Below are positions 13,831-35,136 of a stretch of DNA of 64,000 bases, one piece after another. Source of the DNA: Virgibacillus sp. NKC19-16 (GTDB lineage Bacteria > Bacillota > Bacilli > Bacillales > Amphibacillaceae); contig NZ_CP074373.1 of the NCBI RefSeq assembly GCF_021560035.1, positions 306,001-370,000 of the forward strand, given 5' to 3'. Positions within the stretch are counted from its first letter, which is position 1, and every line of letters starts with the position of its first letter. The translations under genes were made by a program, and so were the position numbers. Below the pieces are notes generated by a model, which saw only the letters and a program-made list of their open reading frames with translations, had not been told where the DNA came from and searched no databases.

Positions 13831-14489
13831 TGGAATGGTCTTGGTTTCCGGTGCAGCTTTCTTTTCTTGTGGCTACCGCAGCAACAGTTATTACCTTTTT
13901 CTTAGGAATACTTGCGGCTTATTGGATGGTAGCGAAGAAGGTTAAAGGAAGAGCGATTATTGAAACCATCTTCTTTCTGCCGCTCGTGTTGCCGCCGACA
14001 GTGATAGGTTTTATGTTAATCATCATTTTCGGTAATAACAGTTTTGTGGGGCGAGCGATTGAAGCATTTACCGGGAGGAGTGTATTATTTACAGTTACGG
14101 CTGCCGTTATAGCTGCAGCTGTTGTATCTTTCCCTTTAATGTACCAATCTCTAAAAACAGGGTTTCTATCTGTTGATAGCAACATCCTGGGAGCTGCAAA
14201 AGTAGATGGGGCGACGGATTGGAAATTATTAATATTAATCGCTATTCCTTTAGCTTTTCGGTCGATTGTGACAGGAGTCATATTAAGCTTTACAAGAGCA
14301 TTTGGTGAATTTGGTGCTACGCTGATGTTTGCGGGGAATATTCCAGGCAAGACACAGACCATTCCTACTGCGATTTATTTTGCTATAGAATCCGGACAGA
14401 CAAATGTAGCTTGGTATTATGTGTTGATTAGTATTAGTTTTTCGTTTGTTCTTTTGTTAATTATTAATCAGACTAGGGTGAAGAGGTAG
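13830..14489 (+). CDS. modB: Molybdate ABC transporter permease ModB
   Basis: Membrane channel of the molybdate importer. 219 residues with about five membrane helices. The EAA loop that docks the ATPase is GAAKVDGATDWKLLILIAIP, followed by FTRAFGEFGATLMFAGNIPGKTQTIPTAIY, typical of ModB. No modC (ATPase) gene follows; the next gene is an LD-carboxypeptidase. B. subtilis also has modA-modB (yvgL-yvgM) without an adjacent ATPase, so the energising subunit is probably elsewhere. Confidence 0.92.
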   Translation: MEWSWFPVQLSFLVATAATVITFFLGILAAYWMVAKKVKGRAIIETIFFLPLVLPPTVIGFMLIIIFGNNSFVGRAIEAFTGRSVLFTVTAAVIAAAVVSFPLMYQSLKTGFLSVDSNILGAAKVDGATDWKLLILIAIPLAFRSIVTGVILSFTRAFGEFGATLMFAGNIPGKTQTIPTAIYFAIESGQTNVAWYYVLISISFSFVLLLIINQTRVKR

Positions 14490-15688: not shown

Positions 15689-15822
15689 CCATAGGTAAAG
15701 CTTATTTTAGGCACAATTCCGAATGAATTAAGAAAGATGATAATTCGACAACTTACACCACTCATGCCCTAGACATCCCCCACCCAATACAGTATAATTT
15801 TTCAACAAGAGAGGTGCTTAAA

Positions 15823-17331
15823 ATGAAGTTGGAGCAGCGGATGTTAACTCCCTTTGTAAAAGCAAAATACTTATCAGAACCCAATTTTAGAAGATATACA
15901 AGTATCATTCATTACTTATACCAGCAGCATGAGTACTATTATGGTCCTCCTGCTTTGCCGAGTGATATTTATAATCATATAGTAGAAAATGACTCCTTGC
16001 AATTGTTCGAGAATTACACAGAGAAACAACTGGATGAAGATTTAAAACAGCTTGAGGAATGGGGAAATGTCGTTTCACATGCGGATAATGCCAGAGTCAG
16101 CAAAATCCAGGACTACAATCGAAGTAGATTGCGCTATCAGTGTTCCGATGAAACAATTGAGATAGAACGTATGTTAGAAAAGCTCGATGGTCAAATCCAT
16201 CGCATAAAAGGTTCCCTGGATTCGAAAATGGTCAGTTCGTTGGCAGCGCTTGTATTGCAATTTCAAAAAATGGAGTTTCAGGCCCCACTAACGAAAGAAG
16301 AACGCGCGGAGTTTCATGAACTTTGGACAGAGATTATCAATCGGTTTAAGACTTTAAGAGAAGAAGCATCGGATTACTTAGGTATCATTCAGAGCAGAAA
16401 CATTGAAGAAGCGATGGAAAACAAAGATATTAGTGCATTCAGGGTGAAATTCACGAACTATTTGACAGATTTCATTATAGCCTTGCAAAATAACACACTT
16501 GTTATTGAATATGCATTGAAAGATATCCAGGATAAAGGCCTGGTTGATCGGGCTACTCAAGAACTGATTATCTACCAGAAGGACAAGCCCAATCTTGAAG
16601 AAGAAATCAAAGATGAAGAGATGGCAGAAATCTATCAAATGCAATGGAGAGGGATTCAAAAATGGTTTGTTGAAGATGAATACGGAGAGCGGTATGTTGA
16701 CTATCTATTAACCCAAACTAATGAAACGATTAGTAAATTCATGAAATTTCTGGAACAACTCACCGAACGCGAACAACAAATGAAAAGTAAAAAGCATGAA
16801 TTTCTACATTTGGCAAAATTGTTTGAGGAAGAAGCGAACTTCGATCATTGCTTGAAAATGTTCGGAGCGATCACCAACATTGAAAGGCCACCACATTTCT
16901 TTTCCGAGCGAAATCAAGAAATTTATGCTGATGAAACAATTATCGAACAAGGTTCAGAAATCAAGCCACTACAAAACGTCAAAACAGTTGGCATCAGAAA
17001 GAAAAAGCAAATAGCCGTCATTGAACCGAGCGCGGAAGATAAACAGTTATTGGAAAACTTGAGACGACAGAAGGCCTATGAGGAGCAACAACTGGAGGAA
17101 TTCACACAAAGAGGCAGGGTTGCGTTGGGCGAAGTAGAAGAAATAGAAAACTTTATTTTATATGCCATTCTGGATTGGATCAGCAAAGCAAATTCCACAA
17201 CGGAAAAACGCGGCAAGACGGATAACGGCGTTAATTACCATATTGCAAAAAATAGTGATCAAATGGTAAGCGTTCATACAACAGAAGGAACACTAACAGT
17301 CGATGATTATGTCATTCATTTCGAGGTGTGA
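15823..17331 (+). CDS. jetA: Wadjet subunit JetA (TIGR02677/DUF2397-like, MukF-like kleisin)
   Basis: Kleisin subunit of the Wadjet SMC complex, which recognises and linearises incoming circular plasmids. 502 residues. The N-terminal part has the winged-helix look of the TIGR02677 family (FRRYTSIIHYLY, then LDEDLKQLEEWGNVVSHAD and a YNRSRLRYQCSDETIEIERML segment). The middle is helical and charged. The C-terminal EPSAEDKQLLENLRRQKAYEEQQ followed by a small domain fits the kleisin end. ATG 15823 follows GAGAGG by 8 bases; GTG 15814 overlaps that site. First of four genes with gaps of 3 bases or overlaps. The type label (type III by recollection of family names) is less certain than the Wadjet call. 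Confidence 0.85.
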   Translation: MKLEQRMLTPFVKAKYLSEPNFRRYTSIIHYLYQQHEYYYGPPALPSDIYNHIVENDSLQLFENYTEKQLDEDLKQLEEWGNVVSHADNARVSKIQDYNRSRLRYQCSDETIEIERMLEKLDGQIHRIKGSLDSKMVSSLAALVLQFQKMEFQAPLTKEERAEFHELWTEIINRFKTLREEASDYLGIIQSRNIEEAMENKDISAFRVKFTNYLTDFIIALQNNTLVIEYALKDIQDKGLVDRATQELIIYQKDKPNLEEEIKDEEMAEIYQMQWRGIQKWFVEDEYGERYVDYLLTQTNETISKFMKFLEQLTEREQQMKSKKHEFLHLAKLFEEEANFDHCLKMFGAITNIERPPHFFSERNQEIYADETIIEQGSEIKPLQNVKTVGIRKKKQIAVIEPSAEDKQLLENLRRQKAYEEQQLEEFTQRGRVALGEVEEIENFILYAILDWISKANSTTEKRGKTDNGVNYHIAKNSDQMVSVHTTEGTLTVDDYVIHFEV

Positions 17332-17334
17332 AAA

Positions 17335-18558
17335 GTGATAGATGTAGTAGAGGGAAACAAAAAACAAATTAGTGAAGAAGTGCAGCGTTGCATTAGGCTA
17401 TTAATCGAACGCTTTTGGATTACAAGAGATGATAATGAGGAATTATATTATCTCATCAAAGATAATGAAGCAGAAATTAAAGCATTTTTTCGGGACACGT
17501 TTCGCTACCGCTTGATCATTACCCATGATTTAGTAAAACTCGAGAAAGTTCCTGTCAAAACATACAACTGGATGGGAAATAAAGAGGTAAAGAGTCAGAC
17601 CACCTTCAAAAAACAACGTGACTTTGTCTTTTTGTTTTGTATACTAGCATTTATTGAGGGCAAAGGAAGAGACGACCAGTTTTCGCTGCAAAATATATGT
17701 GAGGCAATTCAGGCATATTACCCACAAGCAGACGACAGGGAGCATGTAACGATTACCTGGAAAGAAGGTTCCGGTTATCAAAACCGACTCTCCTTAATCC
17801 GTGTCTTAAAATACGCGTTGAAAATGAAGTTGATTGTTGAAGTGGATCAACATCTGGAAGACTTTGCCGCGGACGATGAACACGACGTATTATTTGAGCG
17901 AACACCATATGTTACTTATTTTATTCGTAATTTCAAAGATTTATTTGCATGGAAAACCTATAATGATTTCAAGGCGCACCTGGATAATGAAAATGACGAA
18001 TATATCGATGGGAAACACCGATTTTATCGGCGCCTGTTTTTAGAGCCAATTGTTTATCATCATGAAATAACGGAAGATGAACAAGATTATGTGAAGCGGT
18101 TCTATCATAAGATCGAAAGCAATGTTCACAAATATACAGGCTATGAATACGAGCGCTATAAGCATAACTCGGTATTAACGAAAACAACGATGGCTTCCGG
18201 TGAAGTAGTCCACCCTGCCGAAAATATGCTGTCAAACCTTATCTTGAGATTCGCCGGGTGTATACTGGAAAATCAGACAGACTATGAATTTTCATTTACG
18301 AATGAAGTCGACATGTCCAATAATGAAATACAGCAGATTCTAACAAAACTAAAGATGAGCGACTCCCGTTTCTGGTCGAAAAGTTTTAAGCAAATGACCT
18401 CCGAAAACCTACGAAATGTTGTTACAAATTATCTGGTGAACTGGAATTTTGCAGATGTGAAAGATGATAAAACACTGACATTAAAAGAAGGGCTTTTCCG
18501 TATTGTTGGGAACTATTCCAATGAACATACAAAGGATAAGGAGGGAAATCAAACATGA
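17335..18558 (+). CDS. jetB: Wadjet subunit JetB (TIGR02678/DUF2398-like, MukE-like)
   Basis: KITE/MukE-like subunit that bridges kleisin and SMC in the Jet complex. 407 residues. Recognisable TIGR02678 features: an opening helical segment CIRLLIERFWITRDDNEELY, then FFRDTFRYRLIITHDLVKLEKVP, the KKQRDFVFLFCILAFIEGKG helix, a winged-helix part with ALKMKLIVEVDQ, and FERTPYVTYFIRNF. GTG start 7 bases after GAGGTG, which lies over the jetA stop. Its stop overlaps jetC by ATGA, so jetB and jetC are translationally coupled. Confidence 0.85.
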   Translation: MIDVVEGNKKQISEEVQRCIRLLIERFWITRDDNEELYYLIKDNEAEIKAFFRDTFRYRLIITHDLVKLEKVPVKTYNWMGNKEVKSQTTFKKQRDFVFLFCILAFIEGKGRDDQFSLQNICEAIQAYYPQADDREHVTITWKEGSGYQNRLSLIRVLKYALKMKLIVEVDQHLEDFAADDEHDVLFERTPYVTYFIRNFKDLFAWKTYNDFKAHLDNENDEYIDGKHRFYRRLFLEPIVYHHEITEDEQDYVKRFYHKIESNVHKYTGYEYERYKHNSVLTKTTMASGEVVHPAENMLSNLILRFAGCILENQTDYEFSFTNEVDMSNNEIQQILTKLKMSDSRFWSKSFKQMTSENLRNVVTNYLVNWNFADVKDDKTLTLKEGLFRIVGNYSNEHTKDKEGNQT

Positions 18559-21500
18559 GCGAAACAGTAGACAAATGGCAAATGCATCGTGCGAAATTAT
18601 TTAGCTTCTGGTATTATCCGGATCAGGAATTTTATTTTACAGATGGCTGTGCGGTACTCCGTGGACATAATGGCAGTGGTAAATCGGTAACGACCCAAAG
18701 CTTAATTACTGTATTACTGGATGGAGATGTACGGAGTCACAAACTGGACCCTTTCGGTGGAAGAGAACGTAATATCACGGACACTGTATTGGGTGAAGAA
18801 GGTTTACTCGGGATTAATGAACGCATCGGCTACATTTTACTGGAATTTAAAAAGGAGAATTCACAAACTTACAAAACAATCGGGATGGGAATCGAAGCAC
18901 GGAGAGGGAAAGCGCAAAACAAGGTCTGGTATTTCATTGTTGATGGCAAACGCTTTGGTAACGGTGAAGGATTTCTCAAGCTTTATAAAGAAGAAATCAT
19001 CGAGGGATCACTTAAAAAGCTACCTTTAAATGAAAACCAGCTTCGTAATCTGATCGAAACAGAAAATCGCTGTGGAAGAATTTTCACCGACAGGAAAGAC
19101 TATGCCGACAAAGTAAACAAGCATCTATTTGGGTTTGATACACTGGAAAACTTCATGGGACTGATTGATTTATTAATTCAAATCAGAAGTCCAAAGCTAA
19201 GTGATAAAAATAGACCAGAAGGCGTGGCAGAAGTGATTAATGACTCACTCCCCCAACTGACAGAAGGCGAATTACGCCCGTTAACAGATTCGATTGAGTC
19301 CATTGATCGTATCGAAAAGGATTTGCAGGATACAAGAAAAGACTTGAAATCCATGGAAAAACTAAATGATGTTTTTGTGAAATACAACCAGATCGCATTG
19401 GTTGAAAAGGCGACGGAATATAGGAAAGCAGAGAAGTCTTTAAACAAACTGAAAACCGAAATCTCCCAAAGAGAAAAAGAAGTAAAGAAACAGAACGAGC
19501 GATTAGAAGAAATCGAGTCAAGTCGAACAAAGCTGTCTAACCAGCTGGAGGTAAAAAGGGAAGAGCTAAATTCACTTGGTGTGAAAGATATTGAGGAAAT
19601 CGAGGGACGTAAGCAGGAAGCAGAAAGAGACTTTAACGTCTTAAGTCAAACACTACAATCTTTAAACGAAAAATTAGATAACACAGTCAAGCGGAAGCAA
19701 GAGGCGCAAAAGAAAAAAGAAGCAATGGAAGCAGATCTTTATACATTTGAAAAGGAATTTAAGGGTTTTATCCAGGAACTTGATAGTATCACGGAAGAAA
19801 TGGATTTTTCCAAGCATCATCAATACATGACACATCTGGTCGCAAATCAAAATGAACCCGCTTATTCCTTCCTGGCATGGAAAGAAGAGGTGAAAAAATA
19901 TGGCCAATTCCTAACAACGATTAAATCCGATCTGGAAAAATATGAGAAACTAAGAGACCAACTTGGCCGGATTGATAATGATTTAGGCGACATTCAAATG
20001 AAAATTGACGCGTCACAAACCGTTATTAGTGACTGCAAAGATAAAATAGATGAAGAAATTATAAATGTAGTAGAGGCAGTGCAGCAATGGGCCGATAATA
20101 CGACATCACTAAAAGTCGACCAAGAAACGAAAGATAGTCTGATTGAAGCGGTAGAAGATGTATTTGATCAACTATCAAAAGAAGCTTATCTTAACCCGTT
20201 AGAAATGTTATATCAACAGCGAAAGGAAGAAAACCAATCAAGAAAAGTATCCATTTCCCATCAAATTAGTCTCCTAGAAACGGAAAAAGCAAACATAGAA
20301 AGTGAGATAACCGAATGGGAAAATAAAGAAGAGATAGAACCAACCTTTGTTGAAAAGAAAAGAAAGGCTTGGAAAGCACTCACAGAAGCCGGAATTGACT
20401 ACGTGCCTTTTTATGAAGCTTTTGAATTTGATGAAGCTATTAACCCCCACGAGGCGCTAAATTATCAACATGCGCTAATGGAATCCGGAATTCTTCAGGC
20501 AGTAATCGTAAAACCGGAAGATGTCGACAAAGCGAAACAGTATACAACTGTCTTGGAATATGGAGACAGGCAAAAAAGTAATTTAGCAACCGTGCTAAAA
20601 TCAAGTCATGGCAGTCATTTGGAAAAGGTGCTCACCTCCATTTCAGTTGAGGAAAAGAACGGGACGTATATTTTAGCTAGTGGTGCTTTTAAAAGTGGCC
20701 TCGTAAAAGGGAAGGCATCCCAGCAGGAAGATGCTCTATTTATTGGAAAAGCAGCCAGAGAGATGTACCGACAGGAAAAAGTCCGCAGTCTGAAAGAAGC
20801 TCGGGATCTAACAGATGAACAAATAGCGGAACAACAAAGCAGGCTTACACAAACAAAAGAAGCACAGGCTAACATGGAAGCAGAATATGAATCTTTCCCA
20901 TCTTTAGCTAACTTATCCGAATTATACACCAAAATAAATACCGAACAGCAAACTATCACACAAATCTATGAACCTTCACGAAAAAAATTGAGTGACGAAT
21001 ATAGCGACATAGATGAGGAAAGCAAGAAACTATTGGTACAAATTAAAGCAAAACTGGATTTCACGGAACTTGATTTAACCATCGAGGCGTTCGAGACAGA
21101 GCTGAGGAATCAACAGGACTACATGCAATGTTTGCAGGATATGGAAACTTCCTTCACGAAGAAAATGAATGCGAAGGCAAGTTTTGCTGACTATAGTGAT
21201 CGCTGCACAGAATATGAAACACAAGTTGATGAAAACCGTTCCGATGTCCTGGACAATGAATCGAAACAGGACAAGGCCAAAGAGAGAATTTCCACCTATG
21301 AAAACCGGTTAAGGGAAATGGGCTCCGAAGACATTCGCAATAGAATTACGGAACTTACCCAGGAAATCAATACATCCATTCCGGAACAATTAAATGAAAT
21401 AGTGACAGAACATGCGAATGTCGTACGTGATATTGAGACAGGAGAACAATTTATTACTGAGAAAAAGGAAAATGAAGTCCCTTTTAAAACAGTGGTTCAT

Positions 21501-22700
21501 GAAGCGTGGGAGAAAGAATTCCAGGCACATTATAAACTGGGTTATCTGGTCGGTGAAAATGACGCATCCGATTACTTGGAGATCGCCGAAGAAATTGAAA
21601 AGCAATATGGCTCGATGATTGATAAGAAAAGGGAGGAAATCGAGAAAGTAAAAAATAGATTGACGAATACCTTCAATACCCAAAATATTGAATTATTCCA
21701 TTATGAACTGGAAATGCAAACAGCAAAATCCGATTACCTTCCATCTTTTGATACGGATGATGATAGTAAAAATGCAACATTAAATTTGATGAGTGATCAA
21801 TTGTCACGCATTATTGTCACCATGAATGTCGATGGAGAACGCGTTCCACCGACATACGCGGTAAAACATTTGACAGAGCGTATCGAGCGGTTGGATAGAG
21901 ACATCAATGAGAAGGATCGCGACTTATATGAACGTATCCTGGTCAACACATTGGGCGATACGATCCGTAGAAAAATTACCTATGTACAGCGCTGGGAAAA
22001 AGAAATGAATAAATTTATGGAACACGAAAATTTAATCAAGTTTCGCTTGTCATGGAAACCGAAGAAAAAGGAAAATGAGGAACAGCTTGATACATTGAAA
22101 TTGGTGGAAGCATTGAAAAGGGATAGTCAATGGATTGATGTTGACGAGATAAGCAGCCATTTCCGTTCCAAAATCAAGATAGCCAGACGCAGGCACGAAA
22201 GCCAAACCCATAAGGAATATAATTTAAAAGAAATCATGCGTGAAGAATTGGATTACCGTAAATGGTTTGAGTTTGAAATCTACTTTACGAAGAAAAATGA
22301 CAAAGAAAAGAAATTAACGAGAAACACGTACGGGGAATTAAGTGGCGGACAACGCGTGCTGGCAATGATCACACCGGTGCTGGCAGCATTATATGCAAAA
22401 TACTCGGAAGCAAGTGAGACCTGCCCACGAATTTTTACATTGGATGAAGCATTTTCACGTGTGGATGATGATAATATTAATATCATGTTTGAATACATCC
22501 GCAAATTGAATTTCAATTATATACTCAATTCCCAATCGTTATGGGGATGCTACGCGTCTGTTCCGTCCCTCAATATATATGAATTGAGTCGTCCGGAAAA
22601 CAGGCCACATGTATTGATTGATTCGTATTACTGGAACGGAAAGAAAAAAGTCAGAACAGAACAATTGGAAAGTGGGGAAGAGCGGCTTGTCACCTCTTGA
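18555..22700 (+). CDS. jetC: Wadjet SMC-like ATPase JetC (TIGR02680-like, MukB-like)
   Basis: Motor of the Jet complex: an SMC ATPase that extrudes DNA loops. 1381 residues. Walker A is GHNGSGKS (residues 37-44). A very long coiled coil follows (about 270-500 and 720-1100) around a globular hinge region near 600-700. The C-terminal head has the ABC signature LSGGQ near 1262 and Walker B IFTLDEAFSRVDDD near 1294. N-terminal ATPase half, coils and C-terminal half are all intact, so it should be functional. AAGGAGGG precedes the ATG. The jetD start lies inside its last codons. Confidence 0.92.
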   Translation: MSETVDKWQMHRAKLFSFWYYPDQEFYFTDGCAVLRGHNGSGKSVTTQSLITVLLDGDVRSHKLDPFGGRERNITDTVLGEEGLLGINERIGYILLEFKKENSQTYKTIGMGIEARRGKAQNKVWYFIVDGKRFGNGEGFLKLYKEEIIEGSLKKLPLNENQLRNLIETENRCGRIFTDRKDYADKVNKHLFGFDTLENFMGLIDLLIQIRSPKLSDKNRPEGVAEVINDSLPQLTEGELRPLTDSIESIDRIEKDLQDTRKDLKSMEKLNDVFVKYNQIALVEKATEYRKAEKSLNKLKTEISQREKEVKKQNERLEEIESSRTKLSNQLEVKREELNSLGVKDIEEIEGRKQEAERDFNVLSQTLQSLNEKLDNTVKRKQEAQKKKEAMEADLYTFEKEFKGFIQELDSITEEMDFSKHHQYMTHLVANQNEPAYSFLAWKEEVKKYGQFLTTIKSDLEKYEKLRDQLGRIDNDLGDIQMKIDASQTVISDCKDKIDEEIINVVEAVQQWADNTTSLKVDQETKDSLIEAVEDVFDQLSKEAYLNPLEMLYQQRKEENQSRKVSISHQISLLETEKANIESEITEWENKEEIEPTFVEKKRKAWKALTEAGIDYVPFYEAFEFDEAINPHEALNYQHALMESGILQAVIVKPEDVDKAKQYTTVLEYGDRQKSNLATVLKSSHGSHLEKVLTSISVEEKNGTYILASGAFKSGLVKGKASQQEDALFIGKAAREMYRQEKVRSLKEARDLTDEQIAEQQSRLTQTKEAQANMEAEYESFPSLANLSELYTKINTEQQTITQIYEPSRKKLSDEYSDIDEESKKLLVQIKAKLDFTELDLTIEAFETELRNQQDYMQCLQDMETSFTKKMNAKASFADYSDRCTEYETQVDENRSDVLDNESKQDKAKERISTYENRLREMGSEDIRNRITELTQEINTSIPEQLNEIVTEHANVVRDIETGEQFITEKKENEVPFKTVVHEAWEKEFQAHYKLGYLVGENDASDYLEIAEEIEKQYGSMIDKKREEIEKVKNRLTNTFNTQNIELFHYELEMQTAKSDYLPSFDTDDDSKNATLNLMSDQLSRIIVTMNVDGERVPPTYAVKHLTERIERLDRDINEKDRDLYERILVNTLGDTIRRKITYVQRWEKEMNKFMEHENLIKFRLSWKPKKKENEEQLDTLKLVEALKRDSQWIDVDEISSHFRSKIKIARRRHESQTHKEYNLKEIMREELDYRKWFEFEIYFTKKNDKEKKLTRNTYGELSGGQRVLAMITPVLAALYAKYSEASETCPRIFTLDEAFSRVDDDNINIMFEYIRKLNFNYILNSQSLWGCYASVPSLNIYELSRPENRPHVLIDSYYWNGKKKVRTEQLESGEERLVTS

Positions 22701-24003
22701 TGAGATTACAACTATTTTCAGACGCGAAAAGGGGTTCTACCGCCTTTTCTCCCTTTTTATAAAAAAATATAAAAGCTATGAACGTGTCGAAAAAGGTATA
22801 TCCGTCGTGTTGAATAATCCAACGCCTGATGAAAAACGTGCCATATCCGGTTTTATCGGTAAGGATTATTCGAAAAATAGCACAATAAAATTAACAGCAG
22901 CAACAATGGAAAAAGCTATTTTAAAAACGAAATATGGTAAACAGCTGGATTCCGTCTCGTTTCAAGAAATCGTAGAAGCCTATTTAGGCGTGCCACTAGT
23001 TAGTAATCGGGAAGAAGAAGAGCTTTTCCTGACAGATAGAAAAGCCTATTTCGATAACTTGGAAAGCACCTGCAGTTCCAGTCTTTTTGTGGCACTAATT
23101 GATTGGATCAGAAGAACAAAGAACAATCGATTTTATCAAATGTACAATAATGACACGGTATCTTTAACCAAGGTGATGCATTATTTGGATAACGCATTTG
23201 CATTATTACCGTTAGAAAACTATGAATACCTAGCTGTTTTCGCTTCTAATGCAACCGGAAATCCACATGCTTTTGACGTAAATGAGAACGAAGGAAAGCT
23301 GTTTATTTATGCATTGCAAATTATCCATTCCTTAGAGAGTGATTGGGAAATCAGGGAATTGAGTGCAGAAGAAAGAGCAGAACTATTATATGAATTTCAC
23401 ATCCTGACAGATGACTTATTAAATTTTGTTTCCGTATTTCAAGCAACAGGTAAAAACAAAAACGGCATCGATAATATGCTCCTATATGGTGCGAGTCAGG
23501 AAAAATCCTTTTTTCATTTACCATTAAAAGAAGTGGTTAAATTGAGCAGTGTCACGTCAGCTTCAGGCAAAAAACGTCTGTTTATGATCGAAAATTCCAG
23601 TGTAGCTTCGCATGTTGTAAGTGAACTATTGAAGCATGATATTGATGAAACCATCGTATCAGGAAACGGACAGTTCAAAATCGCAACCCTGAAATTCCTT
23701 GATGCGTTTGTCGAAAATGGCGGGACTGTTTATTATAGCGGTGACTTTGACCCAGAGGGAATACTGATGGCATTTAAACTGAAAAAGCGATATGGTGATA
23801 GGTTGAACTATTGGAACTATGATGTAAAAAATTACCATGCGGCACTATCTCATGAGCCGATTTCGGAAAGAAGATTAAAGCAATTGAACAATATAAATGA
23901 TCCAGCATTACAGCCATTGATTCAAGAAATAGCGGAAATAAAGCAGAGCGGTTATCAGGAAAAGATGTTGGTAAAGATTGTGGAGAATTTGAAAGGATTG
24001 TAG
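22687..24003 (+). CDS. jetD: Wadjet nuclease JetD (TIGR02679/DUF2399-like, Toprim)
   Basis: Topoisomerase VI-A-like nuclease that cuts the plasmid trapped by JetABC. About 438 residues. The C-terminal Toprim domain has its acidic residue in FMIENSSV (Glu302), then SGNGQFKIATLKFLDAF and the DxD motif in YYSGDFDPEG (Asp353, Asp355), the pattern of TIGR02679 proteins. The frame is open from 22618, inside jetC. TTG 22687, with GGGGA 8 bases before it, gives a 14-base overlap with jetC and a sensible N-terminus (SPLDEITTIFRREKGFYRL); GTG 22672 is an alternative. Two terminators follow. Confidence 0.85.
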   Translation: MSPLDEITTIFRREKGFYRLFSLFIKKYKSYERVEKGISVVLNNPTPDEKRAISGFIGKDYSKNSTIKLTAATMEKAILKTKYGKQLDSVSFQEIVEAYLGVPLVSNREEEELFLTDRKAYFDNLESTCSSSLFVALIDWIRRTKNNRFYQMYNNDTVSLTKVMHYLDNAFALLPLENYEYLAVFASNATGNPHAFDVNENEGKLFIYALQIIHSLESDWEIRELSAEERAELLYEFHILTDDLLNFVSVFQATGKNKNGIDNMLLYGASQEKSFFHLPLKEVVKLSSVTSASGKKRLFMIENSSVASHVVSELLKHDIDETIVSGNGQFKIATLKFLDAFVENGGTVYYSGDFDPEGILMAFKLKKRYGDRLNYWNYDVKNYHAALSHEPISERRLKQLNNINDPALQPLIQEIAEIKQSGYQEKMLVKIVENLKGL

Positions 24004-24039
24004 TGGGACGAGGGGAGTAGGCTGCTCGTCCCACTTTTT
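24002..24039 (+). terminator. Intrinsic terminator of the jet operon
   Basis: AGTGGGACGAG pairs over 11 bp with CTCGTCCCACT and is followed by TTTTT. It begins within the jetD stop codon. The GGGACGAG/CTCGTCCC arms and the loop closely resemble the hairpin inside moaC at 24371-24397, so this looks like a member of a repeat family used as a terminator. Confidence 0.85.
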
Positions 24040-24047
24040 GATAAGCG

Positions 24048-24085
24048 GTACGAGCAGGACATGCGTCCCTGCTCGTACGATTTAT
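24048..24085 (+). terminator. Second hairpin terminator after the jet operon
   Basis: GTACGAGCAGG (24048-24058) pairs with CCTGCTCGTAC (24068-24078), followed by GATTTATTTTTTT. With the preceding hairpin it forms a double terminator between jetD and the convergent moaC. The stem sequence is related to the GACGAG hairpins nearby. Confidence 0.75.
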
Positions 24086-24239
24086 TTTTTTAGATAAGCG
24101 ACGATAAGGTTTTAATCAGGCATTGGCAGGTATTTAACGGAGGTATTGTATGCCTGGAACTAATTAAGATTAAGCCAAAGTGAAAGTTGTGTAAATATAT
24201 TGTAGAAATGAGTACATTTGTATCCAACATTATCTCTCG

Positions 24240-24884
24240 TTATTTGTCACGCTTCTTTCCCTCCTCATGCATTTCCCGTCTAATTTCTTTCACAAGGTCT
24301 ACAACATCTTCTTCTGTCTCAAGCCCTAGCCTTTCAGCTTCACCGTCAAATGAATCCTGTACCTGCTGCAGGGACGAGGAACCTGCCCCCTCGTCCCGCT
24401 TAAAATCGCCACTCTTCCCGCCGCTTTTTTCCTGCAGGTACGTTTGTCCAATGATCATTGCCTTGTCGATTGCTTTACACATATCATATACAGTTAATGC
24501 GGTAGCGGATGCAGCGGTTAATGCCTCCATTTCCACGCCCGTATTGCCAATTGTTTTTACTTCTGCGGCAATGTCTAATTCATACATATTGTTTTCCAGG
24601 GATAGCCATTCAAACGAAAGATCGACGCCGCTGATTGGGATAGGGTGGCACATTGGTATTAACGAAGATGTTTGTTTTGCCCCCATGATGCCGGCAACCT
24701 GGGCAACAGCTAATACATCTCCTTTTTTATTCTTCTGCTCTACGATATTTTCATATACATCCTGATTCATTTGTACACTGGAATGGGCAATTGCTTTTCG
24801 GGAACTTTCCTTTTTATCTGTAATATCAACCATTTTTGCTCTAGCCTGTTCGTTAAAATGTGTGAAATCTGTCAATCTATTCAC
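24240..24884 (-). CDS. moaC: Cyclic pyranopterin monophosphate synthase MoaC with an unusual C-terminal extension
   Basis: Completes cPMP formation after MoaA. Residues 1-165 are standard Moa[72 protein letters not shown] and the closing [12 protein letters not shown], where MoaC normally ends. Here the frame continues for about 50 residues: a stretch encoded by a REP-like hairpin ([14 protein letters not shown]) and then a charged helical tail ([20 protein letters not shown]). I do not recognise the tail. Start GTG 24884 or TTG 24875; GAGGAG lies 3 or 12 bases upstream. It stands alone, 10 kb from the other Moco genes, with the Wadjet operon between. Confidence 0.9.
24371..24397. repeat. REP-like hairpin inside the moaC 3' region
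   Basis: GGGACGAG and CTCGTCCC form an 8-bp stem with an 11-base loop. Arms and loop resemble the terminator hairpin at 24005-24033 (GGGACGAGGGG...AGG...CTCGTCCC), only 350 bases away. It lies exactly where MoaC homologues stop, so it looks like an insertion that removed the stop codon and extended the protein. Confidence 0.65.
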
Positions 24885-25103
24885 CTGCTCCTCAAGTAAT
24901 GTGATTCCAAGAACTCTATTACTAGTTTAATTCAGGCGGGAATGGAATTCAATAAGCCTGTGAATATCAGCGGGGATTGTGTTTTATTAGCGCTTGGACT
25001 CTGGTTATCAGCGATTACCTTCATTTTATCAGCGTATTAGCCAAAATATTTCGCTTTTTCTCTTGCATATCGTATAGTAATTACAAAAATGGAGGTGAAA
25101 TTC

Positions 25104-25433
25104 ATGGCAACAATAGAGGATTTTTCAAAGTTAGAAATTCGAATTGGTACTGTAGTAGATGCAGAACCCTTTCCAGAAGCGCGGAAGCCAGCCATAAAAT
25201 TGGAGATCGATTTTGGTGAGGCGGGGATGAAACAGTCTTCTGCCCAAATTACCAAGAGATATGAGCCAGAACACCTTATTGGTCGTCAAGTAGCCGCAGT
25301 AGTAAACTTTCCAGACAGGCGCATCGCGGGTTTTAAATCAGAGGTATTAGTAATCGGAGGAGTTCCTGAAGAAGACGATGTGGTACTGCTAAAGCCGGAC
25401 GCACCGGTTAAAAACGGCACGCCAATTTCGTAA
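25104..25433 (+). CDS. csaA: CsaA-like tRNA-binding-domain protein
   Basis: Small OB-fold protein of the CsaA family, described in B. subtilis as a chaperone with SecA and preprotein affinity; the fold is that of the tRNA-binding domain of methionyl-tRNA synthetase. 109 residues: [41 protein letters not shown], then the conserved [25 protein letters not shown] 25104 has GGAGGTG 6 bases upstream; the frame opens 5 codons earlier without a site. Single gene with its own terminator. Confidence 0.9.
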
Positions 25434-25443
25434 TATGTAAAAA

Positions 25444-25484
25444 GGCCGAAAATACATATATGCGGTATTCTCGGCCATTTTATT
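25444..25484 (+). terminator. Intrinsic terminator of csaA
   Basis: GGCCGA and TCGGCC, with inner AATAC/GTATT, form a stem at 25444-25476 followed by ATTTTATTTT. It lies between csaA and the convergent patatin gene and can serve both. Confidence 0.8.
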
Positions 25485-25502
25485 TTAAAAAATATAAGTG
25501 CA

Positions 25503-26396
25503 TTAAGAAGAAATATTTTTCTCTAAATAAATTGATTTTTTGGTACCCTTAAGAAAATTATCGAGTGCGCTGCTTTTCTTTTCTGCCTCTCTATATCCTT
25601 GAATATATAAATCATCAAGTTTCGATTTATTACGTTCTATACGACTGGCTACCAATGGCTCATTCGGTTGTATGATGAACACCTCTCCCCGTTTTTCCAT
25701 TTCCAGCAGCATCTTCATCTTCTTGTTATACGTAATATGGCGTTCTTTTAATGCTTTTGCAAATGCGGGGTGGTCTTTAAACGCCCGTTTGAAAAGCCAA
25801 TTTAATTTTGTTGCTTTTTTTACATATCCTCTGTTTCTGGTGAGAACCACGATATGCTTTTTATTCGCGTTATCTATTGAAGGTGTGATGGGGATAGGGT
25901 CAGAGATGCCACCATCCATTAAGTTATTCCCTTTAAATGAAACACTTGGTGCTAGCAAGGGTAAAGAACTGGAAGCCCGAATGATTTTAAGCAGCTCATC
26001 CTTCGTTTGATAGGTATCGTAATGGATTGGTTTTCCTGTATTTATATTTGTAGTCCCAATTACAAATTTACTGTTTGCTTGAGAAAAAGCATCGAAATTA
26101 AATGGAATTAACTCATTGGGAATTTTATCAAAAATAAAATCCATTCCGAATAGGTCCTTTTGACGAAGCACCCGCCTGTAAGAAATGGACTCCGGGTTTT
26201 TCCCTAATGTAGTAAGTATTTCATAATTCCTTTCCCGTTGTTTAGCTATGAATGAACTCCCAATCAACGCCCCTGCTGATGCTGTTGAAACAAGTGGGAA
26301 TTCTATTTCTTTATCAAGAAAGAAATCAAGTACGCCTGCAGTATAAGCGCTTCTCATGCCACCGCCTTCTAATACAAGGCCTACATCGTCTAACAC
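25503..26396 (-). CDS. Patatin-like phospholipase family protein
   Basis: Predicted lipid acyl hydrolase with a Ser-Asp dyad, cytoplasmic. 297 residues. The oxyanion loop GLVLEGGGMRSAYTAGVL opens the protein, the nucleophile is Ser40 in STASAGA, and the catalytic Asp161 is in LMDGGISDPIPI. The first glycine of the usual G-x-S-x-G is replaced by Thr, a variation seen in some patatins, so activity is likely but not sure. The basic C-terminal third is unassigned. Start is GTG at 26396, about 10 bases after AAGGAAG. The substrate is unknown. Confidence 0.85.
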   Translation of the reverse strand: MLDDVGLVLEGGGMRSAYTAGVLDFFLDKEIEFPLVSTASAGALIGSSFIAKQRERNYEILTTLGKNPESISYRRVLRQKDLFGMDFIFDKIPNELIPFNFDAFSQANSKFVIGTTNINTGKPIHYDTYQTKDELLKIIRASSSLPLLAPSVSFKGNNLMDGGISDPIPITPSIDNANKKHIVVLTRNRGYVKKATKLNWLFKRAFKDHPAFAKALKERHITYNKKMKMLLEMEKRGEVFIIQPNEPLVASRIERNKSKLDDLYIQGYREAEKKSSALDNFLKGTKKSIYLEKNISS

Positions 26397-26598
26397 ATTA
26401 ATACACTTCCTTTATTAAATATACTAAAAGTATAGCAGTTTTATGAGAAAGTAACCAATATGCCGTTTCTGGAATGTTTTTCTATAGCTCGGATTGTCAA
26501 TTGGCTTTATTATACAATGTATGTGATGGTTTCTAATATATTATAAGTGAAGGGAAAATGGGGAGTTTATATAAAAATCAAAAGTGTGGTGAAAAACC

Positions 26599-27291
26599 TT
26601 GTTTAAAATTATGTTAATTGAAGATGACGCCAATCTTTTTCAAGAAACGAAGGAAAGGCTGTCCCAATGGTCTTATGATATCTTTGGGGTTACTGATTTT
26701 GATGCAGTCATCCAGGAATTCACAGCCATTCAGCCAGATTTGGTCATTATTGATATTCAGCTTCCTAAATTTGACGGATTCCATTGGTGCCGGATGATTC
26801 GTTCCCATTCCAATGTTCCGATTATCTTTTTATCGGTACGAGATCACCCTACGGATATGGTGATGTCCATGCAATTAGGGGCAGATGACTATATTCAGAA
26901 ACCATTTCATTTTGATGTAATGATTGCAAAGATCCAGGCTATCCTACGCCGTGTCTATAATTACAACACGGAAAGTCAGTTCAAATTACATACATGGTGT
27001 GGTGCAACCGTAGATTATATGAAAAATACAGTCTCCAATGAAGTGGGTTCGATTGAACTTACGAAAAATGAAATGTATATATTGAAAGTCCTAATTGAAA
27101 ACAAAAGCCAAATCGTCACCCGGGAAAAACTAATTGAGAGCTTGTGGAAGGATGAACGTTTTATTAGCGATAATACTTTGACAGTCAATGTAAACCGCTT
27201 GCGGAAAAGACTGGGTGAGCTAGGTTTAAGTCATTTTATCGAAACAAAGGTTGGACAGGGTTACATCGCTTTGGAAGAGGGACAAGTATGA
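26599..27291 (+). CDS. Response regulator, OmpR family, BceR-like
   Basis: Two-component regulator controlling the adjacent ABC transporter. Receiver domain residues 1-115 with acidic pocket ED(D) at 8-10, phospho-acceptor Asp52 in VIIDIQLPKFDG and the conserved Lys in YIQKPFHFD; C-terminal winged helix (EIELTKNEMYILK to HFIETKVGQGYIAL) typical of OmpR/BceR. 230 residues. The start is TTG 26599 with a weak GGTGA site 8 bases upstream. The stop overlaps the kinase start at 27288 (ATGA). Expected to sense drug flux through the BceAB-type transporter downstream. Confidence 0.87.
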   Translation: MFKIMLIEDDANLFQETKERLSQWSYDIFGVTDFDAVIQEFTAIQPDLVIIDIQLPKFDGFHWCRMIRSHSNVPIIFLSVRDHPTDMVMSMQLGADDYIQKPFHFDVMIAKIQAILRRVYNYNTESQFKLHTWCGATVDYMKNTVSNEVGSIELTKNEMYILKVLIENKSQIVTREKLIESLWKDERFISDNTLTVNVNRLRKRLGELGLSHFIETKVGQGYIALEEGQV

Positions 27292-28291
27292 TGATAACAT
27301 ATATCATCGAAAGAAAAAGCTGGATCCTTCTCTTCTTGTTCACACAACTTGTTGTCATCCTTATCTCTTATATAGACGCTTCCATCCCGTTCGAATCCAG
27401 TTTCTATATCATTTTTTAAATATGCTTATTTTTATGATCTTTTTCATCATTCGTTACAACAAAGAGGCGAAATTCTATAAAAGCATGGATGAATGGGATA
27501 AAACCTCGGACTTAACAAGTATAATCGAGGCAGAGAGTCCTTTTGAAAAGATCGTCGAGGATAGTGTCACAATCCAAACAGAGCAGTATAGTAAAGGAGC
27601 AGCTGAATATTTGCAAAATATCGAAGAGGAACAGGATGACCTGACGTCCTGGATTCATGAGGTCAAAACACCTATCACAACAATGCAATTGATGATTGAG
27701 CGGATTGATGATCACACCTTAAAATCACAGCTAATGAATGAGTGGCTTCGTGTCCACCTCTTGCTTGATCAGCAGTTGCATCATAAGCGCATTCCTTTTA
27801 TAAAAAATGATCTTTACATTGAAAAAATAGCATTGGAAGAGCTGATCTATACAGAAATTAAAGTACTCCGGTCATGGTGTATACAAAAAGGAATCGGCTT
27901 TGACGTTTCACTTGGAGCTGCAGAAGTACAGACAGATGCCAAATGGCTTTCATTTATGATCAGGCAGCTATTTACAAACGCGGTGAAATACAGCGAGGAA
28001 TCAGATATTATTGTTAAAAGTTATGTCGCAAATGGACAGATAAAAATCCAGATCACCGATTCTGGGCGAGGCATTGATCCAAAGGATATCTCAAGTATCT
28101 TTGAGAAGGGGTTTACATCCACGATCAAACATCAGGACAGTTCAGCAACCGGAATGGGGCTTTATTTAACTAGAAAAGTAGCAGGTTCCTTAATGATTGA
28201 TATTGAGGTAGACTCGAAATTAGGGGAAGGCACTACGTTCACTCTTACCTTCCCAAAAAAGAATGATTTCGTGCATCTTACAAGCATGTGA
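27288..28291 (+). CDS. BceS-like sensor histidine kinase, broken by a single-base frameshift between its two membrane helices
   Basis: Intramembrane-sensing kinase of the Bce module. The true start is ATG 27288, overlapping the regulator stop; it encodes MMITYIIERKSWILLFLF and the first membrane helix but stops at 27417-27419. In the -1 frame the protein continues at once: LNMLIFMIFFIIRY (second helix), then NKEAKFYKSMDEWD, the H-box SWIHEVKTP (His124 if repaired), N-box and G-boxes (DSGRGIDP, ATGMGLYL). The break is in a run of six T (27412-27417); seven would give one 334-residue kinase, the family length. The open frame running back to 27251 is an out-of-frame reading of the regulator end. 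It is either a deletion or a sequencing error. Confidence 0.88.
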
Positions 28292-28316
28292 CAAAAACGT
28301 CACATGCTTCTCTTAT
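28282..28316 (+). terminator. Hairpin at the end of the kinase gene
   Basis: AAGCATGTGAC and GTCACATGCTT form a perfect 11-bp stem around AAAAAC, followed by CTCTTATTT. The left arm includes the kinase stop codon. It separates the regulator-kinase transcript from the transporter genes. Confidence 0.75.
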
Positions 28317-28394
28317 TTGTTCGGCGAATCGAAGGAAATAAGATGTTGATTCTTATATGATAAAACTATCAGGAAAAAGGAGTGATTCATCGAC

Positions 28395-29153
28395 ATGATA
28401 CTTGAAGCAAAAAAAATTCATAAAAGCTACGGGAATAAATTTAATAAACAGGAAGTATTAAAGGGTATAGACGTTAACGTACAAAAAGGAGAATTCTTAA
28501 GCATCATGGGGGCGTCCGGGTCCGGTAAAACGACCTTGCTTAATGTCCTCTCTTCTATTGATAGGGTCAGTCAGGGAACGATAAAAATTGAAGGAAAAGA
28601 ATTCACGGGAATGAAAGAGAAACAGCTGGCCGAATTCCGAAAGCATCATTTAGGCTTTCTTTTTCAGGAATATAATCTTCTGGATACACTGACAGTCAAA
28701 GAAAATATTTTACTGCCATTATCCATCACCAAAGTATCCAAAAAAGAAGTGGATCACACATTTCAGTCTATTGCCACAGAGCTTGGCATTTATGAGGTGA
28801 AGGATAAGTATCCGAACGAAATATCCGGCGGACAAAAACAACGAACATCCGCAGCACGGGCGTTTATTCATGATCCGAGTATTATTTTTGCCGACGAGCC
28901 AACTGGTGCATTGGATTCCAAATCCGCTTCTGATCTATTAAATAAGCTGAGCGAATTAAATCAGAAACGGAATGCAACTATTATTATGGTTACACACGAC
29001 CCCGCTGCGGCAAGCTATTCCTCAAGAGTCATATTTATTAAGGATGGCGAGATGTATACGCAATTAAACAAGGGCGAGGAAACGAGACAAGAATTCTTTA
29101 AGGACATCATAAAAACACAGGGTGTACTGGGTGGGGTGCAAAATGAGCATTAA
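28395..29153 (+). CDS. ABC transporter ATP-binding protein, BceA-like
   Basis: ATPase of a peptide-antibiotic detoxification transporter of the MacB/BceA class. 252 residues: Walker [18 protein letters not shown]-loop [18 protein letters not shown], signature [14 protein letters not shown], Walker [17 protein letters not shown] and the H-loop [20 protein letters not shown] precedes the ATG. It overlaps the permease gene by 11 bases. By analogy with BceAB it should confer resistance to bacitracin, lantibiotics or similar cell-wall peptides; the actual drug cannot be read from sequence. Confidence 0.92.
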
Positions 29154-31092
29154 TCATCTCATCTATCGAAACCTGAAAAAGAATATAAAGAATTATTACC
29201 TTTACGTTTTTGCACTGGTTTTCAGTGTCGCACTGTATTTTGCCTTTGTCACGCTGCAATATGATCCGTCTATGGACAAAGTAGAGGGCTCCATTAAAGG
29301 GGCTGCAGCAATACAGGCAGGATCTGTTTTGCTTGTCGCTATTGTCGCCGTGTTTATTTTCTATGCCAACAATATTTTTATTAAGCGCCGCAGCAAAGAA
29401 ATCGGCTTATTTCAATTAATTGGCATGACTAAGGGAAAGATTTTTCGGATTCTCAGTGTGGAAAATGCCTGTCTGTACTTTGGCTCCCTTGTTATCGGCA
29501 TCTTTATTGGATTTTCCGTTTCAAAGCTGATCGTGATGATATTGTTTAGAATCACTGGCGTAGAGGCAGTTACAACGTTACGTTTTTCAACCGAAGCACT
29601 GGTGCAGACACTACTTGTTTTTGCGGGAATCTATCTCTTCATTATGCTATTGAATTATATTTTCATTAAGAAACAAAGCATTCTAGTCTTATTTCAGGTT
29701 AAGTCTTCAACGGAAACAAAGGTGAAGAAAATGTCACTGTGGCAGATGATCATTGGCATCTTGGGAATCGGATTAATTATTTTTGGTTACTGTGTGTCTA
29801 CCAAATTATTCAGCGGCGAATTTTCTATGATGACTGAATTATCTGCGGCCATACTCTTTATATTAGGTTCTGTCATTATCGGGACGTATCTTTTCTATAA
29901 AGGATCTGTCAGTTTCATCTTTTATCTCATTCGGAAAAGGAAAGATGGATACTTAAATCTTAATGATGTGCTTTCACTTTCCTCTCTTATGTTCCGGATG
30001 AAATCAAACGCCTTATTGCTCACGGTCATTACCACCATATCAGCACTAGCGATTGGACTCTTATCACTGACCTATATTACCTATTACTCAGCAGAAAAAT
30101 CTGCAGAACAATACGTTCCAAGTCACTTTTCCATGATAAACACGGAAGATGCGGAACAGTTTACAAGTGCTTTGGAGGAAAATCAAATCCCACATAGTGA
30201 AACGCGTATAGATGTGATCCAGGTGGAAACGGATATATCACAAATCATGGAATCAAATGTTGATGATCCCGCATTACAGTATGATCCGAGCATCATGCAG
30301 TTATCTGTTGTCAGTGAGGAAGCAGTTGGGGCGTTCGATGTATCTCCTAAAGAAACCTATTTTGCTGGTTATAGTCAGGTGATGCAGCAAATGATGTCCT
30401 TGAATGAGTCAGGCCAAATCGTGATGGAAGGAGAAAATGAGTCCATTCCGCAAAATTATTTAGGATTAAGAGATGATTCCATCCTGCCTATCTATTTTAC
30501 TGCTGGCGGGCTTCCGGTAGCAGTTGTAGACAACACAATCTTTCAACGGCTCGCACAGGATATTGACCCTGATATTCAAAGAGAATCATCTATTTACATC
30601 GGACTTGATATGAAAGATCGATCAGATATGGAACAAGCAAATGAAATTTTTCAGGACATGACGTTTAATGCGAATGCAAATTCTTCTCAACTCGGAACCA
30701 GCAACAGTCAAAAAATGAATATGGGTCTGATTATGTTTATCGTCGGCTTTTTAGGATTAGCCTTTCTGATTACATCGGGATGTATTCTTTATTTTAAACA
30801 AATGGATGAGGGGGAAGAAGAGAAGGGGAGTTATACTATCCTGAGAAAGCTCGGCTTTACACGAGGAGACATATTACGGGGGATTCAAATGAAACAACTC
30901 TTCAACTTCGGGATCCCATTGGTGATTGGATTATTGCATAGCTATTTTGCAGTGAAGTCTGGATGGTTCTTGTTCGGCACGGAACTGTGGACACCGATGA
31001 TTCTTGTTATGTTGGTGTATACGGGCTTGTACTCTATTTTTGGGATACTCTCGGTAATCTATTATAAACGGTTGATTAAAGAAGCACTTTAA
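29143..31092 (+). CDS. ABC transporter permease, FtsX-like, BceB-like
   Basis: Membrane partner of the preceding ATPase. 649 residues with the BceB plan: one N-terminal helix near [19 protein letters not shown], FtsX helices ([22 protein letters not shown] is the conserved cytoplasmic loop), and a large extracellular domain of about 200 residues (roughly 320-520) that binds peptide drugs and signals to the kinase. Three more helices close it. ATG 29143 has GGTGGGG upstream and overlaps the ATPase stop; an earlier in-frame ATG at 29122 is unlikely. Intact, so resistance could work even if the kinase is broken. Confidence 0.9.
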
Positions 31093-31285
31093 TAGGTAAT
31101 GCTTTGCCTCTGAAAATGCAGAAATTTATCACCAATGTCGAAAGTGCCCCTACCTCTTAGCGCAATCGTACGTGGCGAGGTGAATCGACAAAAATAGAAG
31201 TATATGATAGCCAAACGTTTGTTTTTAAATTGTAAAAATTATATAATATGATTAATAATTAAAATGAAGGAAAGGGGGTTAGGAT

Positions 31286-32728: not shown

Positions 32729-32890
32729 ATGCAGTTCCGAAGGCTAGACCAACGGAATAGCGGGTCTGAGTGTGAATAGTCCACTGATGTCGCAGGTCCG
32801 GTAACGTTAATCGTTCGCTTTATAAGATCGATACGTTGCAAACTCCCATCTTCAAAACGTATCAGCGTTTAAGTGGGAGAAGTTGATTAT
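32700..32890 (+). ncRNA. Probable omega RNA (reRNA) at the 3' end of the tnpB element
   Basis: In TnpB elements the guide scaffold spans the end of tnpB and the right end. Here about 160 non-coding bases follow the stop and contain stable stems: AGACC/GGTCT near 32743-32766 and the two-tier CTCCCA/TGGGAG hairpin at 32843-32879. The guide would be the sequence just past the right end, around 32890-32910. Placement is by family rule plus visible hairpins; extents are approximate. Confidence 0.5.
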
Positions 32891-32950
32891 CATGTTTAAT
32901 AGCTAGGCTGACGGGAAAAGTCTAATTAGAGACAAAAGGAGTGAGACAAT

Positions 32951-33598: not shown

Positions 33599-33606
33599 GA
33601 TAGCGT

Positions 33607-33646
33607 AAGACGGTTTGGCCAGTATATGGCTGAGTCGTCTTTTTTC
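33607..33646 (+). terminator. Intrinsic terminator of the yhfK-like gene
   Basis: AAGACG/CGTCTT outer stem with inner GGCCA/TGGC, followed by a T-run (TTTTTT) and C. Nine bases after the stop codon. Confidence 0.8.
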
Positions 33647-33670
33647 TTGCTGCACAAGTGCAACTAAGGG

Positions 33671-33704: not shown

Positions 33705-33777
33705 TAGTATTTTTGATCTTTTTTTGCTAAGCTGTATCCTATAAGACTGCATTCAAAAAAGAATAGAGGAACAAATC

Positions 33778-35130: not shown

Positions 35131-35136
35131 GAAGTG

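What the first reader, a model, noticed from the sequence alone, without database searches (positions are those of the whole stretch)
15823..24003. Complete Wadjet (JetABCD) anti-plasmid system
Four coupled genes encode a MukF-like kleisin, a MukE-like subunit, a 1381-residue SMC ATPase with intact Walker A, LSGGQ and Walker B, and a Toprim nuclease with Glu302 and Asp353/Asp355. The families look like TIGR02677, TIGR02678, TIGR02680 and TIGR02679, which I recall as the type III Wadjet set, a less studied branch than the structurally solved types. All key motifs are present and the operon ends in two terminators.
Basis: partly seen in the sequence, partly recalled or inferred. Interest (0 to 1): 0.85.

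Follow-up and report, generated by a model that had tools for sequence, protein, structure and literature searches.

The report
Type II Wadjet anti-plasmid operon
This stretch of a Bacillus-family chromosome carries a complete four-gene machine that most likely reels in and cuts small circular plasmids; it is a new, rather divergent copy of a known defence system (type II Wadjet, not type III as first guessed).

Summary
In detail: four intact, tightly coupled genes (window 15823-24003) encode JetA, JetB, JetC and JetD with the expected catalytic motifs. The type label is wrong. TIGR02677-02680 / DUF2397-DUF2398 is the type II Wadjet set: every subunit's best PADLOC profile is type II, and type I and III JetDs from the same bacterial family, used as controls, go to their own profiles. 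Type II is not structurally unsolved: JetA, JetB and JetC match PDB entries 9qe0/9qe1 nearly end to end; only type II JetD has no credible solved relative by sequence. The operon belongs to a rare divergent branch: two close relatives (80-88% protein identity; Lederbergia sp. NSJ-179 and one unnamed genus), other full-length matches 24-35%. The three copies share just the operon, from the -10 box to the end of jetD, between unrelated flanks; it is absent from the same chromosomal slot in two congeners. dN/dS of 0.04-0.11 indicates that it is kept functional. Verdict: new member of a known kind, horizontally moved, expected to cut small circular DNA after loop extrusion.

The parts
15770..15798 (+). 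probable promoter of the operon: TAGACA, 17 nt, TATAAT (11 of 12)
   Evidence: best-scoring site of the scan, but the number of sites in the region (32) equals chance (30.3); a TATAAT stands at about the same place in 3 of 3 copies of the operon while the sequence upstream of it differs
15823..17331 (+). jetA, kleisin (DUF2397 / TIGR02677), 502 aa; RBS-like AGAGAGGTG upstream of the ATG
   Evidence: PDB 9qe0 JetA E 1.7e-55
17335..18558 (+). jetB, KITE/MukE-like subunit (DUF2398 / TIGR02678), GTG start, 407 aa
   Evidence: PDB 9qe0 JetB E 2.8e-46
18555..22700 (+). jetC, SMC ATPase (TIGR02680, SbcC_Walker_B), 1381 aa; Walker A GHNGSGKS, C-loop LSGGQ, Walker B TLDEAF
   Evidence: PDB 9qe0 JetC E 5.1e-166 over residues 4-1373
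22687..24003 (+). jetD, nuclease subunit (DUF3323 + DUF2399, Toprim-type C-terminal half), TTG start, 438 aa; E302, D353, D355
   Evidence: start chosen by alignment with the copy in L022
24002..24035 (+). intrinsic terminator 1 (hairpin followed by T-run)
   Evidence: z -4.67; not listed by the consensus scan
24045..24090 (+). intrinsic terminator 2 (hairpin followed by T-run)
   Evidence: z -5.44; not listed by the consensus scan
15793..23993 (+). mobile block: the stretch shared with two other genomes between unrelated flanks
   Evidence: 83.5% DNA identity over 8.2 kb with L060 (Lederbergia sp. NSJ-179), 79.6% with L022 (unnamed genus; there the match ends at 23931); boundaries

Best explanation
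A complete, functional type II Wadjet system. JetC (SMC ATPase), JetA (kleisin) and JetB (KITE) form a dimeric loop-extruding motor that loads on DNA and reels it in; on a small circle the two motors complete extrusion and meet, which activates the Toprim nuclease JetD to cut without sequence preference. Large or linear DNA, including the chromosome, escapes. Shown here: gene content, intact motifs, type assignment, strong purifying selection, horizontal placement. Inferred from characterised Wadjet I and II complexes: loop extrusion, size sensing, cutting, protection against plasmids.
For: Best profiles all type II with large margins: JetA 376 bits and JetB 350 bits (only type II profiles listed), JetC 1106 bits against 69 for the best type I, JetD 395 bits against 29 (type III) and 27 (type I). 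NCBIfam TIGR02677/02678/02680 above cut-off. Nearly end-to-end matches to solved JetA, JetB, JetC. E302, D353 and D355 of JetD invariant in 27 of 27 aligned type II JetDs; of eleven further loci that I had left out, nine keep every one of the three that the match covers (one of the nine, L002, covers only E302), while L028 and the decayed L024 lose the last Asp where one match ends or breaks. The same residues align with E201, D253 and D255 of nine JetDs of the type III kind (two of them typed by PADLOC) in a profile-profile comparison (E 2.6e-6). dN/dS 0.04-0.11 in ten pairwise comparisons. One TIGR02680 gene in the genome. Mechanism of Wadjet: PMC10586767 (passages), PMC12647877 (passages and section 7); deletion of a native Wadjet improved plasmid uptake in Clostridium cellulovorans (PMC12287153, passages and section 15).
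Against: JetD is under the TIGR02679 curated cut-off (156.7 against 196 bits), as is the JetD of its sister L022 (183), whereas the five other family JetDs tested pass. The Toprim fold could not be confirmed by structure: both models had low confidence (mean pLDDT 40.6 and 52.3) and the fold search gave no match with E <= 0.001. No activity was measured.
Confidence: 0.92

Rival explanations
1. Type III Wadjet.
Against: All four best profiles are type II; type III JetDs from the same family are about 350 aa and score 391 and 465 bits on JetD3 profiles, a type I JetD scores 364 bits on JetD1.
Confidence: 0.02
2. A Wadjet-derived complex that has lost plasmid defence and now serves chromosome organisation (as proposed for MksBEF without the nuclease, PMC10586767, passages).
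For: The branch is divergent, JetD is the least conserved subunit (80% against 85-88% for JetA), and the jetD of the Lederbergia copy is frame-shifted near its 5' end.
Against: JetD active-site residues kept in 3 of 3 copies, JetD dN/dS 0.11 (one pair); patchy distribution and movement as one unit fit an accessory defence gene set, not a housekeeping one.
Confidence: 0.05
3. A decaying, non-functional relic.
For: Fragments of type II Wadjet genes exist in the same family, for example in G029 (same genus) and G050.
Against: All four frames and motifs intact, strong purifying selection.
Confidence: 0.03

Closest known systems
Wadjet type II of Neobacillus vireti LMG 21834 (nvJET); PDB 9qe0/9qe1 (that these entries are this complex is my inference from the subunit names and from reference 30 of PMC12647877; '9qe0' does not occur in that paper's text)
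   Same: JetA, JetB and JetC align nearly end to end; same four-gene content.
   Different: Distant in sequence: phmmer gives 557.8 (JetC), 192.1 (JetA) and 161.3 bits (JetB). The 9qe0 JetC has LRGTNGSGKSVTMQS as in the common branch, while the window's branch has LRGHNGSGKSVTTQS. The printed part of that alignment does not reach the C-loop.
Operons of Lederbergia sp. NSJ-179 (L060) and of G054 (L022)
   Same: Same operon, 80-88% protein identity, nearly the same boundaries.
   Different: Unrelated flanks; jetD of L060 is frame-shifted near its 5' end.
Wadjet type I (E. coli GF4-3, P. aeruginosa PA14; PMC10586767, passages)
   Same: Expected same principle: SMC motor plus Toprim nuclease.
   Different: JetA and JetB match no type I profile, JetC matches them weakly (69 bits). 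The N. vireti type II hinge lacks the channel and cannot bypass obstacles (PMC12647877, section 7); whether this JetC shares that is untested.
Wadjet type III
   Same: Homologous Toprim half of JetD.
   Different: Shorter JetD (348 and 357 aa in the two typed), other profiles.

Membership tests
Wadjet type II | JetA = DUF2397/TIGR02677 | tested here: met
   PF09660 287.8 bits, TIGR02677 213.4 bits over cut-off, PDLC00540 376.1 bits
Wadjet type II | JetB = DUF2398/TIGR02678 | tested here: met
   PF09661 241.1 bits, TIGR02678 153.6 over cut-off, PDLC00542 350.4 bits
Wadjet type II | JetC = TIGR02680 SMC ATPase with Walker A, C-loop, Walker B | tested here: met
   TIGR02680 626.9 bits over cut-off, PDLC00551 1106 bits; motifs intact
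Wadjet type II | JetD matches the type II JetD family | tested here: met
   PF11796 and PF09664 over cut-off; PDLC00556 394.7 bits over 28-459 of the 461-aa ORF
NCBIfam TIGR02679 (hypothetical-equivalog model of type II JetD) | score at or above the curated cut-off of 196 bits | tested here: not met
   156.7 bits, E 8.6e-46; sister L022 183 bits, also below; the other 5 of 7 tested are above
Wadjet type II | JetD active-site acids (Glu and Asp-x-Asp) | tested here: met
   E302, D353, D355 invariant in 27 of 27
Wadjet type II | JetD has a Toprim fold | tested here: inconclusive
   profile-profile match of the C-terminal half to type III-kind JetD supports it; structure models too weak
Wadjet type II | gene order jetA-jetB-jetC-jetD in one operon | tested here: met
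   3-bp gap, overlaps of 4 and 14 bp; co-transcription itself not tested
Wadjet type II | restricts small circular plasmids, cleaves circular DNA | not testable with these tools
   needs a bench test
Wadjet type III | subunits match type III (JetX3) profiles best | tested here: not met
   JetD 29.3 bits for type III against 394.7 for type II; type III controls score 391 and 465 bits on JetD3
Wadjet type I | subunits match type I (JetX1) profiles best | tested here: not met
   JetC 69 bits for type I against 1106 for type II; JetD 27.1; type I control 364 bits on JetD1

The most novel reading that the evidence does not exclude
The window, L060 and L022 form a distinct sub-branch of type II Wadjet whose SMC ATPase has re-tuned active-site loops (C-loop LSGGQRVL in 3 of 3 against FSGGEKA in 29 of 29 others; SRVD against AGVD or AGID after Walker B) and whose JetD departs from the family model. 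It may differ in motor properties or target range from the solved N. vireti complex.
Probability: 0.15. Interest if true: 0.4.

Novelty: new member of a known kind. Interest (0 to 1): 0.22.

Why it matters
It corrects the type label, and so points to the right reference structure and biochemistry (type II, 9qe0/9qe1). It adds a divergent branch of type II with a natural change in the ATPase signature motif, useful for comparing motor behaviour. If active, it would be an obstacle to transforming this host with small plasmids. It does not change the picture of what Wadjet is.

Tried and rejected
Type III label: rejected by profile scores with type I and type III positive controls. Chance ORFs: rejected (family matches over the whole length). 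A wider defence island: Pfam on ten proteins on both sides shows molybdopterin-cofactor genes, probable molybdate transport, LD-carboxypeptidase, MoaC, a tRNA_bind (CsaA-like) and a patatin-like protein. PADLOC was run on ten proteins downstream only (24240-36317): hits were an ABC-transporter ATPase on mad3 (E 4.6e-29), a TnpB-like protein on Cas12f (E 4.6e-19), and weaker ones; I read them as generic, since the rest of such systems is not beside them, but the upstream genes and the rest of the window were not scanned with PADLOC. A viral carrier: two scans of viral contigs with JetD and JetC alignments gave 29 and 51 pattern matches, none of them a relative. A plasmid carrying the same operon: none by megablast; the protein search finds only relatives under 60% identity. 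Site-specific insertion: no exact direct or inverted repeat longer than 8 bp is shared by 15691-15830 and 23931-24245, no tRNA in the window, no Rfam match at gathering score.

Structure route: AlphaFold2 on JetD with a two-row alignment gave mean pLDDT 40.6, on its C-terminal 159 residues 52.3. Foldseek gave no match with E <= 0.001; the second look gave Z of at most 6.9 to proteins that look unrelated by title, and no title among the 50 rows shown names a Toprim protein. This is uninformative because the models are weak. The predicted order of elements around E302 and D353 is strand/helix/strand/helix/strand/helix, compatible with Toprim but not a test. Searching the PDB by sequence with the single JetD and with the 27-row profile found no credible relative.

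Rows dropped before counts. JetD alignment: L023 (my coordinates were wrong), L060 (frame change at the 5' end), L054, L011 (a stop in the gapped frame), L025, L056, L028, L024, and second loci of genomes already used (L002, L009, L026, L027, L029, L030 and copies of the window). Eleven of these loci were checked afterwards: the three residues are kept wherever the match covers them, except that D355 falls in a gap in L028 and in a mismatch at the end of one match in L024, whose second match has it. JetC tree: seven second loci of genes already present and L010 (a stop in the frame) were left out of the 39 listed, leaving 31 plus the window. The tree warns that the long branches of L023 and of the window's clade meet, so the exact place of the clade within type II is unsure. 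In the order and phylum searches only the two best candidates per genome were scored, in the family search three.

Full report
What is there. Four + strand genes lie head to tail at 15823-24003 with a 3-bp gap and overlaps of 4 and 14 bp. JetA (502 aa), JetB (407 aa), JetC (1381 aa) and JetD (438 aa from the TTG at 22687) are all intact. JetC carries GHNGSGKS (Walker A), LSGGQ and TLDEAF. A TAGACA-17-TATAAT site lies at 15770-15798 (the scan as a whole finds no more sites than chance, but the TATAAT is present in all three copies of the operon). Two strong hairpins with T-runs follow jetD, though the consensus terminator scan listed neither.

Type. NCBIfam gives TIGR02677, TIGR02678 and TIGR02680 over cut-off and TIGR02679 under its cut-off (156.7 against 196 bits). 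Pfam gives DUF2397, DUF2398, SbcC_Walker_B, and for JetD DUF3323, DUF2399 and DUF7281. PADLOC names all four subunits type II: JetA 376 bits, JetB 350, JetC 1106, JetD 395; the best type I score is 69 (JetC), the best type III score 29 (JetD).

Known structures. By sequence, JetC, JetA and JetB match PDB 9qe0/9qe1 chains named JetC (E 5.1e-166), JetA (1.7e-55) and JetB (2.8e-46) nearly end to end. A type II complex of Neobacillus vireti is reported to cleave circular DNA and to have a channel-less hinge that cannot bypass obstacles (PMC12647877, passages and section 7; its reference 30, a Structure 2025 paper, is not held). I infer that 9qe0 is that complex. No credible solved relative of type II JetD is found by sequence.

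JetD as a nuclease. In 27 of 27 aligned type II JetDs E302, D353 and D355 are invariant. I then checked eleven loci left out of that alignment: all three residues are kept in eight, the one covered residue in L002; in L028 D355 falls in a gap where the match breaks, and in the decayed L024 one of two matches has a mismatch at D355. hhalign of the 27-row alignment against nine JetDs of the type III kind (two typed by PADLOC; the others 24-64% identical to the first) gives E 2.6e-6 over the C-terminal half, with the glutamate and the D-x-D aligned. Type III and type I JetDs also hit type II profiles weakly and vice versa. Structure prediction failed to give a usable model, so the Toprim fold itself stays inferred. 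PMC10586767 (passages) describes the Toprim domain and the conserved acids of type I JetD.

A rare branch that moves. Among the 159 genomes held for the family, 31 have a JetC match; the close ones are the window itself, G054 (82%) and a 70-residue fragment in G050 (87%, with a stop in its frame); every other full-length match is 31% identical or less. In samples of 397 genomes of the order and 398 of the phylum, no other full-length match exceeds 32% (fragments reach 48%). A scan of named genomes for close relatives gave one, Lederbergia sp. NSJ-179 (86%; 16 pattern matches, 1 relative). The JetC tree groups the three with SH-aLRT 100 on a long stem (2.0 changes per column), with a warning about long branches that meet. 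The DNA shared by the three is the operon alone: window 15793-23993 matches L060 at 83.5%, and 15793-23931 matches L022 at 79.6%, while flanks on both sides differ; the left border falls on the -10 box. Of two genes beside the Lederbergia operon that I looked for in the window genome (named by eye, no family search), a penicillin-binding-protein-like one is 61% identical there and a TerC-like one has no match there, against 80-88% for the Jet proteins. Against G054 the contrast is weak: LD-carboxypeptidase is 79% and MoaC 60% identical, the Jet proteins 80-85%. In the two congeners found, the LD-carboxypeptidase and moaC genes that flank the operon here are 3-5 kb apart with other ORFs between them; in G054 the LD-carboxypeptidase has other neighbours (L048) and the operon lies elsewhere on the chromosome. 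This is good evidence for movement between genera; since only one shared core gene could be compared with Lederbergia, donor and direction are open.

Selection and motif change. Ten pairwise dN/dS values among the three copies are 0.04-0.11; for JetD only the window-L022 pair was computed, and synonymous sites are near saturation for L022, so the values are approximate. The three share a C-loop LSGGQRVL where 29 of 29 other aligned JetCs have FSGGEKA, and SRVD where the others have AGVD or AGID after Walker B. LSGGQ is the textbook ABC signature (recalled), so this is a variation within known ATPases.

Mechanism. From characterised Wadjets: two JetABC motors extrude a DNA loop; when a small circle is fully extruded the motors meet and JetD cuts; plasmids over about 100 kb or linear ones escape (PMC10586767, passages; PMC12647877, passages). 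Deleting a native Wadjet raised conjugative plasmid uptake in Clostridium cellulovorans (PMC12287153, passages and section 15; its type is not stated in what I saw). All parts needed are present here; extrusion, size sensing and cutting are inferred, not shown. The host assembly is a single 3.83-Mb contig with one TIGR02680 gene and no JetD_C (PF09983) match at the threshold used, so no plasmid is seen in it; that is compatible with, but not evidence for, activity.

Literature searched for this type: 'Wadjet' with 'type II' (59 papers, 30 listed), two of 'Wadjet'/'JetABCD'/'vireti' (12), 'Wadjet' with 'TIGR02680' (0), 'Wadjet-II' and variants (3), 'Wadjet' with 'DUF2397' (0). I saw no description of this sub-branch in these listings; they cover open-licence papers only, and the 2018 paper that defined Wadjet types is not held. 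Of PMC8565338 (PADLOC) I saw one passage.

Verdict. Ordinary in kind, solid in evidence: a complete type II Wadjet operon, correctly spotted, wrongly typed, from a rare and divergent branch.

Noticed in passing
window 24005-24032 and 24371-24397: Two copies of a palindrome GGGACGAG...CTCGTCCC about 340 bases apart (0 expected in shuffles): one forms the jetD terminator, the other lies inside the 3' part of moaC, whose ORF is 214 aa here against 170 and 172 aa in two congeners. In five genomes searched, exact copies occur only in G000 (these two) and G066 (two); the reversed control pattern also matched once in G000.
   Followed up: partly
window 31286-32728: 480-aa TnpB-like protein (OrfB_IS605 and Cas12f1-like_TNB domains; PADLOC Cas12f profiles); no Rfam family reached its gathering score in the window.
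   Followed up: no
window 26599-31092: Response regulator, histidine kinase, ABC ATPase and FtsX-type permease in a row, like a Bce-type antimicrobial-peptide sensing and export module (domains; the Bce name is recalled).
   Followed up: no
L024 (G029, same genus): Fragments of jetA, jetC and jetD of type II kind, 31-53% identical to the window's: a decayed Wadjet elsewhere on the chromosome of a congener.
   Followed up: partly
L046 3672-3743 and 6742-7327 (G029): In the slot that holds the operon here, G029 has a second, 72-bp copy of part of the moaC region just after LD-carboxypeptidase, with about 3 kb of other ORFs between the two copies.
   Followed up: no
plasmid collection: 20 plasmid records hold a JetC relative; 19 are 148,985 bp or longer, the one of 72,694 bp matches only 10% of the query. 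This fits the reported escape of large plasmids from Wadjet, but I made no control for plasmid size.
   Followed up: partly
L060 about 14090-14260: The jetD of Lederbergia sp. NSJ-179 changes frame near its 5' end: broken gene or sequencing error.
   Followed up: no
G050:C1:1075187-1075396: A 70-residue stretch 87% identical to the end of the window's JetC, with a stop in its frame: probably a remnant of the same rare branch in a third genus of the family.
   Followed up: no
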